Both the position numbers and the translations under genes were made by a program. The notes under the pieces are model-generated. The model was not told where the DNA came from. It worked only from the letters and a program-made list of their open reading frames with translations, and searched no databases. A stretch of 64,000 nt of DNA from an uncultured Alphaproteobacteria bacterium (GTDB lineage: Bacteria > Pseudomonadota > Alphaproteobacteria > RF32 > CAG-239), in assembly GCA_944392275.1 (NCBI GenBank), contig CALXWA010000001.1:130737-194736 (forward strand). The letters run 5' to 3'. Every line of letters starts with the position of its first letter. The stretch's first letter is position 1. Shown piece after piece: positions 23,466-61,880 of this stretch.

Positions 23466-23578
23466 CTCAGCCCCTTGAAATGAGGGGCTGTTTTTTATGC
23501 CTCTTTTTAAAAAGAGGCGTTTTTTGTTTCAAGGAGGAAACAGGCTGTAATGAAGAAAAGAGGTTTCAAGAAATTTTG
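23466..23578 (+). repeat. Upstream element, copy 1 of 2 (matches 60735-60848)
   Basis: About 113 bp nearly identical to 60735-60848, both lying a few hundred bases upstream of a DUF285-type surface-protein gene. In order it holds a CAGCCCCT/AGGGGCTG hairpin with T6 (23468-23496), the 20-bp palindrome GCCTCTTTTT/AAAAAGAGGC with T6 (23499-23525), the block GTTTCAAGGAGGAAAC, and a mini-ORF at 23550-23603 (MKKRGFKKFCPHFVLIH) whose first nine residues match the other copy's MKKKGFKKF. The hairpins are terminator-like and can end the hydrolase transcript. Confidence 0.85.
23468..23525 (+). terminator. Two tandem terminator hairpins after the hydrolase gene
   Basis: Hairpin 1 (23468-23490) followed by T6; hairpin 2 (23499-23518) followed by GT6. 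Both have the rho-independent layout. Confidence 0.8.
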
Positions 23579-23599
23579 TCCTCATTTTGTTTTAATACA

Positions 23600-23628
23600 T
23601 TGACATGTAAGGGAAATCAGGGTAAAAT
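23600..23628 (+). promoter_or_regulatory. Sigma70 promoter of the long surface-protein gene
   Basis: TTGACA (23600-23605), exactly 17 bp, then TAAAAT (23623-23628). Near-consensus, predicting a 5' leader of about 118 nt. The -35 box overlaps the stop codon of the upstream mini-ORF. The equivalent place in the short copy has no comparable promoter. Confidence 0.75.
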
Positions 23629-23752
23629 AGATGTGTAATGTGCGGAAAGATAAAAGCTATCCATATATCACACACATACATATTTCAACAGCTTTTATAA
23701 AAAATATCGCTTTCCGCCATTACGCCGGTTAAGGATTGTGGAGGGCGGTGTC

Positions 23753-26287
23753 ATGCAGAAGCGTATCTTAGGATTGATAGGAATCATCGTATTATGGTCA
23801 AATTTAGCTGAAGCATCAATTGTATCTTTGCCTCGATATACGGGAGATATCAGTTCCCGATATAATGAAGCCAATATTGGCAAGACGGAAAAATTGAGTT
23901 GTGCAGAGCGAGGCAAAGTTGATAAGCCAAGTGATAGCTGTCAAAAGTGTGTTAACGAATATGCGGGATGTTGTGATTATATTGAATGTAGCACCGCTTC
24001 CAATTGTTATAAATATACTTCGGCTGATGCAGAAAAATATACCTGTGCGTCCTCGTGTCAAGATCGGTCTGGAAAACATTACAAAGATTGTCGTTATCAG
24101 TTAACGTGTAAAGATGTCTTGGGGATGACCACGGAAGAAGCCAGTCCGTATATAGCGGCGGGATTTTATTGCTCTCAAGCAAAAACAACATGTAAGATTG
24201 TAAATGGAACGACCCTTGGATCCTGTAAGCAATCTTCAGTATCATTAGGTGGAGAGAGTAACAGTGGTTCTTTAGGAGGAATGACTTCCGGAGGCAGTAC
24301 CTCAGAACAAAGTATTATTTGTTATACCTGTGCGTGTCCGGAAGGGACCTATAATACTGTTCAGGGAGGAAAAAGCTGTACGGTTAGCCACCAAGTTGGT
24401 AACAGTAAATGTTATACGTGTGGCTGTCCGGCCGGAACCTATGGAGAAGATTGTAAGGCTTGTCCGACGGGGAGTTACAGCAGTACGGCAGGAGCCTCTA
24501 CGTGTAGAGGATGTCCGGCAGGATATGGGTCTAAGACAGGGGTAACGGGAGCCACCAGTCAGGAAGCAGCATGTTCAATTTGTCCGCAAGGAACGTATAA
24601 AGCCAATATTGGCCTGGGAAGTTGTACCGCTTGTCCGACCGGGTATGACGCCATTGCCGGAGTAACCGGAGCAACCAGTGTTACGCAGGCCTGTGCACGG
24701 TCTTGTGTTCCGTGTGATCGTGCAAGTTATCCGTTAAGTAGTTGCCCGGCACATGCGATTTGTGAAGAATGTACTCCGAAATATTGTGATAATACCGCCA
24801 AATCGTATAAAATTACCTCTTGTGAAGGGGGATATGCCCTATCAGGAAATGCTTGCAAGAAAGATGGTGGGGCTATTAAAATGGTAATAGATACCAGTTT
24901 GGATACCAATTTTCGATTTGCTGTACAGCGTTCTGCCGAGTTTAATATAAATGTTGATTGGGGAGATGGAGTAAAAGAAAATTACCAAGGAGCCACAGGA
25001 GATACACTTATTAGCCATGCCTATACTAATAGTGGAAAATATACGGTAACAATTACAGGTGTCCTTCCGACATTGTATCAAATAACTACATACAATATTG
25101 TTGAATTAAAACAGTTCAATCTTTCTACGATTAAAAGCCTTTATACTACGTTTAGTGGTCATAAAGAATTCACGGGAAGTATTCCAGAATTACCTAAAAA
25201 TTTGGAATTGGGGCAGTATGCGTTCGCTAACAGTGGGATAACGGGAACCATACCGGATTTACCAGATAGTTTGAAAAATGGAAACTATATGTTCTCCGGT
25301 TGTAGTGGTTTGACGGGAACTATCCCAGCATTACCGGATAGTTTGACCAATGGAACTAATATGTTCAAAAGTTGTAGTGGTTTGACGGGAACTATCCCAG
25401 CATTACCGGATAGTTTGACCAATGGAACTTCTATGTTCGAATATTGTAGTGGTTTGACGGGAATGACCTCTCATATTTCAACTAGTTTGACGAATGGAAC
25501 TTCTATGTTCTCTGGTTGTAGTGGTTTGACGGGAACTATCCCAGCATTACCGGATAGTTTGACCAATGGATCTGATATGTTCTCTGGTTGTAGCAGCTTA
25601 AAGGGAACCATCCCAGCCTTACCGGATAGCTTGACAGATGGAATTTATATGTTCTCTAATTGTAGCAGCTTAACGGGAACCATACCGGCCTTACCGGATA
25701 GCTTGACCAAAGCTGCTGGTATGTTTTATCGCTGTAGTAGTTTGACAGGAATGACATCCCATTTACCAACTAATTTGACCAATGGATCTTATATGTTCGA
25801 ATATTGTAGTAAATTAACAGGAAGCATTCCAACATTACCAACAAGCTTGAAGGATGGAAGCTTTATGTTTGATGGTTGTAGTAAATTAACGGGAACCATA
25901 CCAGCATTACCGGATAGCTTGACTAATGGAACTTATATGTTCTCAGACTGTAGCGGATTGACAAAATTGCCATCACATTTTTCAACTAATTTGACAAATG
26001 CCAACGCTATGTTTATTAATTGTAGCGGACTAACGGGAAACATACCGGCATTACCAAATAGTTTGACAAGCGGAGATAGAATGTTTCAAAATTGTAGCAA
26101 ATTATGGGGGTTTGCCACAACAAATCTGCCGTCAAGTTTATATAATGCAGCTTATATGTTCTATGGTTGCAGTTATTTGAGCGGTAGAACTCCTCAAAAA
26201 CCATCGGGATTAGCCTTCTATTCACAGATCTTCAAAGGGACTAAACTAACTAACGATGGTTCTTGGCCATCCAATGCTTGGCAGTAA
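23753..26287 (+). CDS. Cys-rich, PKD-like, BspA/DUF285-type repeat surface protein
   Basis: A secreted or surface-anchored protein of 844 aa. Signal peptide (QKRILGLIGIIVLWSNLAEA). A cysteine-rich region runs from about residue 45 to 365, with repeated CPxGTYxxxxGxxxCxxCP units like the GCC2/ephrin-receptor type. A PKD-like strand domain (NINVDWGDGVKENY, about residues 375-455) follows. Then come 13 units of about 24 residues (513-825) of the MFxxCSxLTGTIP pattern, the DUF285/BspA-like leucine-rich repeat. The tail ends TNDGSWPSNAWQ. Start at 23753 has GGAGG 8 nt upstream; an in-frame GTG 15 nt earlier is rejected. Likely host- or matrix-binding; function not shown. Confidence 0.85.
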   Translation: MQKRILGLIGIIVLWSNLAEASIVSLPRYTGDISSRYNEANIGKTEKLSCAERGKVDKPSDSCQKCVNEYAGCCDYIECSTASNCYKYTSADAEKYTCASSCQDRSGKHYKDCRYQLTCKDVLGMTTEEASPYIAAGFYCSQAKTTCKIVNGTTLGSCKQSSVSLGGESNSGSLGGMTSGGSTSEQSIICYTCACPEGTYNTVQGGKSCTVSHQVGNSKCYTCGCPAGTYGEDCKACPTGSYSSTAGASTCRGCPAGYGSKTGVTGATSQEAACSICPQGTYKANIGLGSCTACPTGYDAIAGVTGATSVTQACARSCVPCDRASYPLSSCPAHAICEECTPKYCDNTAKSYKITSCEGGYALSGNACKKDGGAIKMVIDTSLDTNFRFAVQRSAEFNINVDWGDGVKENYQGATGDTLISHAYTNSGKYTVTITGVLPTLYQITTYNIVELKQFNLSTIKSLYTTFSGHKEFTGSIPELPKNLELGQYAFANSGITGTIPDLPDSLKNGNYMFSGCSGLTGTIPALPDSLTNGTNMFKSCSGLTGTIPALPDSLTNGTSMFEYCSGLTGMTSHISTSLTNGTSMFSGCSGLTGTIPALPDSLTNGSDMFSGCSSLKGTIPALPDSLTDGIYMFSNCSSLTGTIPALPDSLTKAAGMFYRCSSLTGMTSHLPTNLTNGSYMFEYCSKLTGSIPTLPTSLKDGSFMFDGCSKLTGTIPALPDSLTNGTYMFSDCSGLTKLPSHFSTNLTNANAMFINCSGLTGNIPALPNSLTSGDRMFQNCSKLWGFATTNLPSSLYNAAYMFYGCSYLSGRTPQKPSGLAFYSQIFKGTKLTNDGSWPSNAWQ
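25289..26227 (+). repeat. 72-bp in-frame tandem repeats (13 units)
   Basis: Thirteen consecutive units start with ATGTT and encode MFxxC at 72-bp spacing (one unit is 75 bp). Units near 25289, 25361 and 25505 are nearly identical at DNA level over about 55 bp, while those after about 25700 are more diverged. This suggests recent duplication in the first half of the array. Confidence 0.9.
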
Positions 26288-26306: not shown

Positions 26307-26338
26307 AAAATCCCTTGCTAACGGGCAAGGGATTTTTA
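26307..26338. terminator. Terminator after the long surface-protein gene
   Basis: AAAATCCCTTGC (26307-26318) pairs with GCAAGGGATTTT (26325-26336). The same sequence class follows the short copy at 61881-61917. It also serves the convergent RHH gene. Confidence 0.85.
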
Positions 26339-27060: not shown

Positions 27061-27421
27061 AAAAATCAGCGGGCCGTTCTGTTGATAGGTGGCCCAGACC
27101 CCACTTACAGAACTCCATGTCTGTAAGGATTTAAGTTGTTGCGACTACAACTAAGCAGCCATTGCAACAGGAGCTACGTTATTATCGTTAGCATTCATTT
27201 TAATTTGAACCGATAACGGTGGTATCTCACCGAACACAGCGATCTATCTTTACTGAAACCTGTCAATCCTGTTTCACCCCCAAAAGATATTCCTTTATCA
27301 AAATGTTTCAACCCAAAGCCATTTTGTGAATTAAATTTGGTGGAGGTGCCGGGTACTGCCCCCGGGTCCAGACAACCTATTTCATAGTGCCTCTAGTGTC
27401 ATAGTCGGATTTCTCCGACAA
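27061..27421 (-). ncRNA. ssrA: Permuted two-piece tmRNA (ssrA)
   Basis: tmRNA rescues stalled ribosomes. Read on the minus strand, the acceptor piece comes first and ends in CACCTCC-A-CCA (27338-27348). A 56-nt spacer (27282-27337) follows, and then the coding piece starting GGGGGTG at 27281. GGGGGTG pairs over 7 bp with CACCTCC, so the order is circularly permuted as in alphaproteobacteria. The tag frame (27151-27198) reads from the likely resume codon GCT as ANDNNVAPVAMAA, then TAG. Hairpins and a U-run close the gene near 27061. Confidence 0.95.
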
Positions 27422-27427
27422 AAATAT

Positions 27428-27456
27428 ATTATAGGGATAAATAATTAAAATTTCAA
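27428..27456 (-). promoter_or_regulatory. Sigma70 promoter of ssrA
   Basis: Minus strand TTGAAA (27451-27456), 17-bp spacer, TATAAT (27428-27433). Places the transcript start at about 27421, just before the acceptor piece. Confidence 0.8.
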
Positions 27457-27562
27457 TAACTAAGATTTTCGCCGTAAAGATAAAAATCTGGGGATTAAGC
27501 ACAGCTTTTTGTTTATCTGTTTTGATTTTTGTTAAAATATGCAAAAAAACAGGAGAAGAAAA

Positions 27563-61037: not shown

Positions 61038-61861
61038 ATGCAGAAGCGTATCTCAGGATTGATAGGAATCATCATTGTATTATGGTCAAATTTAGCCGAG
61101 GCATCCATAGCTTTTTTACCCCGATATACGGGGAATATCAATTCCCGATATAATGAAGCCAATATTGGTCCGGGAAGTTGTGCCGCTTGTCCGACCGGGT
61201 ATGATGCCATTGCCGGAATGGTTGGGGCAACAACACAAGTACAGGCTTGTTCGAAAATCGAAAATGATAGTCCAGAAAATGGTGGAGCTATAAAATTGGT
61301 TGTGATACAAACTTAAATAAAAATGTTAGGATACCTCTTCTGGTCTTCAAAAACGGAGCGACGGTAGAGGTTAATATTGACTGGGGCGATGGCGAACAAA
61401 AAACTTACAAAACTGAAGATAATTTAATTGGTACAACTGCAAATCATACGTATGCTGATAATAATCAGTATATTATCACGATTACGGGTGTGCTTGAATA
61501 CCTTCCAGAGATACCGATAAAAAATATTGTTGAAATAAAACAATTGAATTTATCTAGTTTAGAGAGGTTTAGTTATACCTTTTATAGGCACTATCAATTG
61601 AAAGGCACAATTCCAAATTTGCCTCCTAAGTTAATAAATGGAAATTCTGCATTTAAGGGATGTAGCGGATTAACGGGGAATATTCCAAAATTGTCACAAA
61701 GCCTTGAGTATGCATTTAATATGTTTTCTGGATGTAGCAATTTGACAGGACAAACGCCGATAAAACCATCAGGATTGACTTCTTCTAACTCTTATCAGAG
61801 AATGTTTTCCGGAACACAAGTAACCAATGACGGCTCTTGGACATCCAGTGCTTGGTGGTAA
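61038..61861 (+). pseudogene. Shortened, frameshifted copy of the Cys-rich DUF285 surface protein
   Basis: The start region (GGAGGGCGGTGTC, then ATG) and signal peptide match the long gene at 23753. The reading frame stops at 61314-61316, but the next frame from about 61304 continues with DTNLNKNVRIPLLV, a PKD-like NIDWGDGEQ block, two to three MFxxC repeats and the tail TNDGSWTSSAWW, to 61861. Alignment to the long gene implies loss of one base at about 61299-61304. Only one Cys-rich unit (CAACPTGYDAIAG) remains. A sequencing error or programmed frameshift is not excluded, but there is no slippery run. Confidence 0.8.
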
Positions 61862-61880
61862 GCCATCGTCCATCCAAATT

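What the first reader, a model, noticed from the sequence alone, without database searches (positions are those of the whole stretch)
25289..26227. 72-bp in-frame tandem repeats likely to vary in number
Thirteen 24-codon units, several nearly identical over 55 bp, encode the DUF285-type LTGTIPALPDSLTNG pattern. Units in the first half are more alike than those in the second, consistent with recent expansion by slippage or unequal recombination. Changing unit number would alter the length of an exposed adhesin while keeping the frame.
Basis: partly seen in the sequence, partly recalled or inferred. Interest (0 to 1): 0.58.

Follow-up and report, generated by a model that had tools for sequence, protein, structure and literature searches.

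The report
Surface repeats with hypervariable contact codons
This gut-type bacterium carries a family of surface proteins that share a near-identical stalk but end in repeats whose backbone DNA is almost unchanged while four particular codons per repeat are almost fully scrambled, a pattern that looks like a toolkit for making many different binding surfaces.

Summary
The array is real: 13 units, mostly 72 bp, at 25238-26173, in an ORF (23753-26287) that matches BspA-type LRR and DUF285. (1) The gene belongs to a recombining family: it shares 862 and 1013 bp of identical 5' DNA (Cys-rich stalk) with two paralogues, then falls to about 60-75% in the PKD-like part and array; another shares 327 bp internally; a second subfamily with non-LRR C-termini does the same (497-861 bp). 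(2) Among 67 units of this genome, 37 pairs with identical backbone DNA (0/259 four-fold differences) still differ at 181/296 first and second bases of codons 17, 18, 21 and 22, near saturation. The same four codons are the most variable in two other species; 63 of 67 residue quartets are unique. Best reading: diversifying selection on the LRR strand, with stalk and backbone kept uniform by recombination. Ligand and function are unproven. No reverse transcriptase was found, so not a DGR. The genome is a short-read assembly, so exact identity is less certain than the pattern. New variant of a known kind.

The parts
23600..23628 (+). sigma-70-like promoter: TTGACA (23600-23605), 17 bases, TAAAAT (23623-23628)
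   Evidence: read; the same arrangement, with diverged letters, stands upstream of the paralogues printed
23634..23752 (+). 5' leader with a 23-base core (GTAATG...AAAAGC) that can pair with CTTTCCGCCATTAC and GCTTTTAT further down; ends in a Shine-Dalgarno GGAGGG (23740-23745)
   Evidence: the exact core occurs 7 times in the genome, each time before a family gene
23753..26287 (+). surface LRR protein gene (start ATG 23753 preferred over GTG 23738 because of the Shine-Dalgarno), 844 aa
23753..23830 (+). signal peptide region (MQKRILGLIGIIVLWSNLAEA...), by eye
   Evidence: no signal-peptide program was available
23831..24865 (+). constant Cys-rich stalk (Ephrin_rec_like / CPxGTY modules), homogenised among paralogues
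   Evidence: PF07699 2.8e-9; identical tracts of 862, 1013 and 327 bp with paralogues
24866..25162 (+). PKD-like domain and N-terminal part of the LRR solenoid, diverged among paralogues
   Evidence: PF18911 and PF00801 below cut-off, E 0.0089 and 0.11; identity profiles
25163..26173 (+). LRR/DUF285 array: one degenerate unit (25163-25237) and 13 units ending MFxxCS
   Evidence: one strand per unit in the model
26174..26284 (+). C-terminal cap ending TNDGSWPxxAW, conserved across paralogues and species
26308..26337 (+). intrinsic terminator (AATCCCTTGC...GCAAGGGATTTTT)
   Evidence: read; similar hairpins after L025, L026, L027 and L028
61038..61862 (+). decayed second copy of the family in the window: most of the stalk lost between two GCCAATATTGG repeats, then a frameshift; about two LRR units and the cap remain

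Best explanation
The window gene is one member of a multigene family of secreted or surface LRR (BspA/DUF285-type) proteins. Each member has its own promoter and leader, a near-uniform Cys-rich stalk, and a C-terminal LRR solenoid. Recombination between paralogues (gene conversion) keeps the stalk, and in shorter tracts the repeat backbone, uniform; diversifying selection changes the first two bases of codons 17, 18, 21 and 22 of each unit, which lie on or beside the single beta strand that each unit gives to the solenoid, so that nearly every unit presents a different set of four residues. Changes in unit number happen but are secondary. SHOWN: family, identical tracts, hypervariable codons, LRR-type model. 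INFERRED: gene conversion as the exchange process, selection as the driver, ligand binding (host glycans or proteins, immune or phage evasion) as the purpose.
For: Identical DNA tracts with different ends in different pairs: win-L024 862 bp, win-L023 1013 bp, L024-L023 802 bp, win-L025 327 bp (internal), L156-L158 861 bp, L156-L157 675 bp, L157-L158 497 bp, against a maximum of 54-156 bp over 2000 random placements for each pair that has a long tract; away from the tracts mostly 10-60% of bases differ. Hypervariable codons: 37 unit pairs with all 48 backbone bases identical have 0/259 four-fold differences but 181/296 differences at first and second bases of codons 17, 18, 21, 22. Leave-one-out profile over all 24 codons: 0.616, 0.689, 0.658 and 0.384 at these codons against 0.000-0.114 for the 16 backbone codons; the same four are the four highest in G013 and in G021. 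Within these codons pN/pS is 3.78 (478/887 against 36/253) in the 95 close pairs and 2.05 in the 1893 most distant; the backbone gives 0.10 and 0.32. 63 of 67 quartets are distinct. Model: evenly spaced strands 24 residues apart, at unit positions 15-21; Foldseek best match an LRR protein, E 3.2e-5. Paralogues have their own promoters and leaders.
Against: The genome is a short-read assembly (exact 77-base overlaps at contig ends), so near-identical tracts may have been merged into one consensus and true identity may be a little under 100%. No strain series, expression or binding data. In G022 and G045 few unit pairs are close enough to show the contrast, and over all pairs the third bases vary as much as the first two (G022 0.666 and 0.638; G045 0.652 and 0.669), so the strong signal rests on G000 with support from G013 and G021. 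Close pairs were chosen by backbone similarity, which lowers backbone distances by itself; the leave-one-out profile and the within-codon pN/pS are meant to meet this. Half-unit shuffling could add to the diversity. The model is single-sequence, mean pLDDT 67, pTM 0.61, and I could not check which side of the strand the residues face.
Confidence: 0.68

Rival explanations
1. Repeat-number variation by slippage or unequal crossing-over inside the array is the main process; codon differences are ordinary drift since duplication.
For: First-half units more alike than second-half, 0.761 against 0.628, permutation p 0.027; unit number 13-15 among paralogues.
Against: Adjacent units no more alike than distant ones, 0.699 against 0.687; 25 of 37 identical-backbone pairs lie in different genes; drift cannot saturate four codons while 0/259 four-fold sites change.
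Confidence: 0.12
2. A dedicated mutagenic process targets the variable codons (in the manner of a diversity-generating retroelement) rather than selection on random mutations.
For: Variable codons of S, R, G, A, V, T, P, L end in T in 125 of 153 cases against 52.4 (sd 5.6) expected from the codon usage of 11 long window ORFs, while codons 4 and 16 do so in 8 of 133; at codon 18 the first and second bases differ 0.689 and the third 0.021 in close pairs.
Against: No RVT_1 match in this genome, the control search ringing in 3 of 14 control genomes; the ATG in the middle of the variable stretch keeps its A in all 55 units (one of the later 67 units has ATA), which adenine mutagenesis would not spare; base composition at the variable positions is not uniform. 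A frozen third base is also what recent selection on amino acids gives. Outside G000 the T bias is weaker.
Confidence: 0.08
3. Assembly artefact: collapsed repeats and chimeric joins make paralogues look mosaic.
For: Contig ends fall in family genes with exact 77-base overlaps; similar breaks of 141 and 127 bases in G022 and G045.
Against: A collapse needs near-identical stalks to begin with; tracts flanked on both sides by strongly different DNA (L025, L156, L158) are seen; each unit (72 bp) is no longer than the assembler's k-mer of 77, so the variable codons do not depend on long-range joins; the window gene's two flanks are neighbours in 10 of 12 relatives' loci.
Confidence: 0.08
4. Antigenic variation from one expression site and silent cassettes (as in vlsE or msp2, recalled).
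For: Constant part plus variable part shared among copies.
Against: Paralogues have their own promoters and leaders and open frames; the one decayed copy seen (window 61 kb) is not an array of cassettes.
Confidence: 0.04

Closest known systems
BspA-type LRR surface proteins (Pfam PF13306 LRR_5)
   Same: HMM match well over the cut-off (86 against 27.7 bits); tandem LRR units; secreted by appearance
   Different: 24-aa unit; shared near-identical stalk; four codons hypervariable on an otherwise frozen backbone
PARCEL / DUF285 repeat proteins (Roske et al. 2010, PMC2996958; sections 5, 6, 15 and part 1 of section 8 read)
   Same: Tandem arrays of a repeat with conserved hydrophobic and variable polar residues, patchy distribution, multicopy in small genomes; PF03382 match
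   Different: Canonical PARCEL is 25 aa with dyad symmetry in its DNA; here 24 aa and no dyad symmetry above shuffles; the parts of the paper that I read make no synonymous-site comparison of units and describe no homogenised stalk
TAL effector repeats and lamprey variable lymphocyte receptors (recalled, not searched)
   Same: Works like: nearly identical modules that differ at a few residues which make the contacts
   Different: No sequence relation shown; no assembly mechanism or recognition code known here
Gene-conversion antigenic variation families (vlsE, pilE, Anaplasma msp2; recalled; review PMC4534519 seen in a search listing only)
   Same: Constant and variable parts, tracts exchanged among copies
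   Different: Each copy seems to have its own promoter; no silent cassette array found

Membership tests
BspA-type LRR (PF13306) | profile match over curated cut-off | tested here: met
   86 bits, cut-off 27.7
BspA-type LRR (PF13306) | LRR solenoid fold | tested here: inconclusive
   one strand per unit (mean pLDDT 67); best Foldseek match an LRR protein at E 3.2e-5 but TM-score only 0.27: points to LRR, not proof
PARCEL / DUF285 | DUF285 profile over cut-off | tested here: met
   48.9 bits, cut-off 25
PARCEL / DUF285 | TIGR02167 PARCEL repeat profile over cut-off | tested here: not met
   25.8 bits, cut-off 30
PARCEL / DUF285 | canonical 25-residue repeat | tested here: not met
   24 residues in 11 of 13 units, 23 and 25 in one each; the paper admits non-canonical lengths
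PARCEL / DUF285 | dyad symmetry of the coding DNA | tested here: not met
   best arm score 7, synonymous shuffles average 6.65; my scan is not the paper's MEME procedure
Diversity-generating retroelement | reverse transcriptase in the genome | tested here: not met
   0 matches to PF00078
Diversity-generating retroelement | template repeat with adenine-specific change | not tested
   template repeat not sought; the fixed ATG speaks against it
Expression-site antigenic variation | exchange of tracts among copies | tested here: met
   as an inference from identical tracts
Expression-site antigenic variation | single expressed copy and silent donors | tested here: not met
   promoter-like and leader sequences before the intact copies; expression itself not measured
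Expression-site antigenic variation | switching within a clone | not testable with these tools
   no strain or time series held

The most novel reading that the evidence does not exclude
A bacterial counterpart of the variable lymphocyte receptors: a genome-wide repertoire of LRR modules in which a process confined to the first two bases of four codons per module (leaving NNT codons), together with short-tract recombination, continually generates new binding faces on a shared stalk.
Probability: 0.12. Interest if true: 0.88.

Novelty: new variant of a known kind. Interest (0 to 1): 0.62.

Why it matters
DUF285 and BspA-type repeat proteins are widespread and their role is largely open. Here the DNA itself marks which residues are under pressure to differ: four per unit, on or beside the LRR strand. 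That turns a vague 'variable adhesin' into a list of candidate contact residues and a testable prediction (which ligand or which enemy drives them). It also shows why such families are badly represented in short-read genomes: contigs break at the shared 5' parts.

Tried and rejected
DGR: no reverse transcriptase. PARCEL palindromes: none above shuffles. Relatives by a single-sequence scan of genome contigs: none; an alignment scan gave 13 loci, all in metagenome bins. Phage origin: 35 of 50,697 phage records match the PKD-array part, all under 60% identity, first-listed place 31.6%; 2 loci in viral contigs at 24-34%: the widespread repeat type only, no near relative. Copying of whole units as the source of diversity: 63 of 67 quartets are distinct, so copying alone does not explain it; half-unit shuffling is not excluded, since 57 units hold 39 distinct 17-18 pairs and 25 distinct 21-22 pairs. 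A silent-cassette locus: none seen among the places found in the own genome. Leader as a known RNA: the only Rfam matches in the window at gathering score are tmRNA and tRNAs. Prior reports: searches gave nothing that I could recognise as hypervariable codons or gene conversion in bacterial DUF285/BspA families (two returned no paper; for the others only listings were read); subscription papers are mostly not in that library.

Limits of the counts: unit sets hold only units of exactly 24 aa between recognised anchors (67 in G000, 101 G022, 48 G021, 39 G045, 36 G013, 41 in six further genomes); units of other lengths were dropped. The base-composition table and the codon-pair counts left out the ten units of L025 as too diverged. 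An earlier run of the unit parser held only 56 units (55 of 24 aa) because a position filter dropped L028 and most of L026; corrected. One spurious antisense frame (L139_1) put 1 unit among the 48 of G021.

Full report
WHAT IS THERE. The array is real: period 72, 10 copies by Tandem Repeats Finder, score 515, and 13 protein units at 25238-26173 in one open frame, 23738 or 23753 to 26287. The protein reads: signal peptide (by eye), Cys-rich stalk, PKD-like domain, LRR array, conserved cap. Pfam gives LRR_5 (BspA type) 86 bits, DUF285 48.9 bits and Ephrin_rec_like 37.1 bits, all over their cut-offs; PKD is below cut-off. The PARCEL repeat model TIGR02167 is below cut-off. The structure model, from one sequence and of moderate confidence (mean pLDDT 67), shows evenly spaced strands 24 residues apart, and its best solved match is a circular LRR protein, E 3.2e-5, TM-score 0.27.

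THE GENE IS ONE OF A FAMILY. In the same 1.56-Mb genome (9 contigs) array homologues lie at C1:20 kb, C1:369 kb, C5:55 kb, at both ends of C1 and at the start of C7, and a decayed copy lies in the window at 61 kb. The stalk is also found with other C-termini at C1:113 kb, C1:207 kb, C1:221 kb and C3:199 kb. By protein search, array homologues occur in 9 of 39 genomes (own included), all in the same genus, and in none of the 16 outside it. A DUF285 profile search of 35 same-genus genomes (own included) matched in 8, among them G045 and G050, which one search had not covered. Relatives that could be named are metagenome bins, one from roe deer cecum. The window copy sits at a lineage-specific site: of 12 same-genus loci fetched around SspB, 10 have the hydrolase and the RHH gene next to each other with gaps of 51 to 1612 bp and no family gene; in the other two the hydrolase was not found in 6.5 kb (G008) or the contig ended (G010).

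THE STALK IS HOMOGENISED, THE ARRAY IS NOT. Sliding identity shows blocks of 100% between the window gene and two paralogues, beginning upstream of or near the start codon and ending at different places, followed by about 60-75% in the PKD-like part and array. The longest identical tracts are 862, 1013 and 327 bp for the window gene against L024, L023 and L025, and 675, 861 and 497 bp within L156, L157 and L158. For L025 and for the L156-L158 pair the tracts are flanked on both sides by different DNA, so they are not just shared 5' ends. Random placement of the same number of differences never gave more than 156 bp for these pairs (2000 draws each). L027 shows no such tract with the window gene (22 bp, within chance), but 73 bp with L023 in the PKD part (chance maximum 44). 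I read this as gene conversion between paralogues. The caveat is the assembly: contig ends show exact 77-base overlaps, as a short-read assembler with k = 77 leaves, and near-identical tracts may have been merged. The same call shows that the end of C9 and the end of C1 join the window gene's path at 23588 and 25198, so a further copy is probably indistinguishable from it in between. In other species the family genes are cut at contig ends: of 27 family frames in G022, G021, G013 and G045 (one antisense frame left out), 21 run into a contig end on their 5' side; some pairs of such ends share exactly 141 or 127 bases from the first base on, the mark of collapsed identical 5' parts. Other ends share shorter tracts, and G021 none of 30 bases or more. 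So the design seems to repeat in other species with a different stalk sequence.

FOUR CODONS PER UNIT ARE HYPERVARIABLE. I took all 24-aa units of the genome (67 units from 7 genes or gene fragments). Among 37 pairs whose 16 backbone codons are identical in every base, none of 259 four-fold sites differs, yet 181 of 296 first and second bases of codons 17, 18, 21 and 22 differ (0.61); the most distant pairs reach 0.63. With codons left out in turn, the 95-123 closest pairs differ at 0.616, 0.689, 0.658 and 0.384 of first and second bases in codons 17, 18, 21, 22; next come codons 15 (0.326), 1 (0.300), 24 (0.205) and 14 (0.100), and the 16 backbone codons lie between 0.000 and 0.114. The four positions were picked on G000; in G013 and G021 they are again the four highest. 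Inside these codons pN/pS is 3.78 in close pairs; the backbone gives 0.10. Of 67 residue quartets 63 are distinct. Four consecutive units of the window gene (6-9) face four units of L024 (8-11) with the same backbone order, while 11 of the 16 variable residues differ. Against this: in G022 and G045 too few units are close enough to test, and over all pairs third bases vary as much as the first two.

A CURIOUS DETAIL. In G000 the variable codons mostly end in T, whatever the amino acid: 125 of 153 against 52.4 expected from 11 long window ORFs, while the backbone glycines are GGA (47 and 44 of 55). The plain reading is that all descend from units with T there and that mainly changes that alter the residue have been kept; a mutagenic process limited to the first two bases would look the same. 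No reverse transcriptase is present.

REGULATION. The copies whose upstream DNA I printed have sigma-70-like promoter sequences and a ribosome-binding site of their own. The leader's 23-base core occurs exactly 7 times in the genome, each before a family gene; one more site with three mismatches lies by an adhE-like gene. L023, the 61-kb relic and L158 have other leaders. So this does not look like one expression site with silent donors.

READING. Best supported: a surface LRR family whose stalks and backbones are kept uniform by recombination while residues on the LRR strand are driven apart by selection. The ligand is unknown.

NOVELTY. The repeat type, its patchy spread and its multicopy state are known (PMC2996958, sections 5, 6, 15 and part 1 of 8 read; DUF285 repertoires in Mycoplasma, passages of PMC10634449). 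The contrast of frozen backbone and scrambled codons, with a homogenised stalk, I did not find in print in searches. I rate it a new variant of a known kind.

Noticed in passing
window 23634-23752; L156:1634-1752; L157:3625-3744; L159:3850-3966: Family-specific 5' leader: GTAATGTGCGGAAAG + ATAAAAGC can pair with CTTTCCGCCATTAC and GCTTTTAT downstream around an invariant ATATATCACACACATACA loop; in the window copy's predicted best fold CTTTCC pairs instead with the Shine-Dalgarno, so the leader could be a two-state switch. No Rfam match.
   Followed up: partly
window 61038-61862: Decayed family copy: most of the stalk was lost between two GCCAATATTGG direct repeats (holding a 10-base palindrome), followed by a frameshift.
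   Followed up: partly
L156:1705-4215, L157:835-3774, L158:1221-2531: A second stalk subfamily, again with 497-861-bp identical tracts, but with quite different, non-LRR C-terminal parts: the stalk seems to be a general carrier for exchangeable C-termini.
   Followed up: partly
window 23480-23625: A stretch of 107-146 bp (two terminator-like hairpins and GGTTTCAAGAAATTTTG) upstream of the gene recurs at 89-99% at C1:191487, C1:206979 and the end of C9, each before a family gene or its likely start.
   Followed up: no
window 27068-27460 (-): Permuted (two-piece) alphaproteobacterial tmRNA beside SspB.
   Followed up: no
L138 (G021:C27): A relative's array gene is split into two frames by an in-frame TAA, each half keeping several intact units.
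   Followed up: no
contig ends of G000, G022, G045: Exact shared ends of 77, 141 and 127 bases show assembly-graph breaks at this family; short-read bins will tend to lose or cut these genes.
   Followed up: yes
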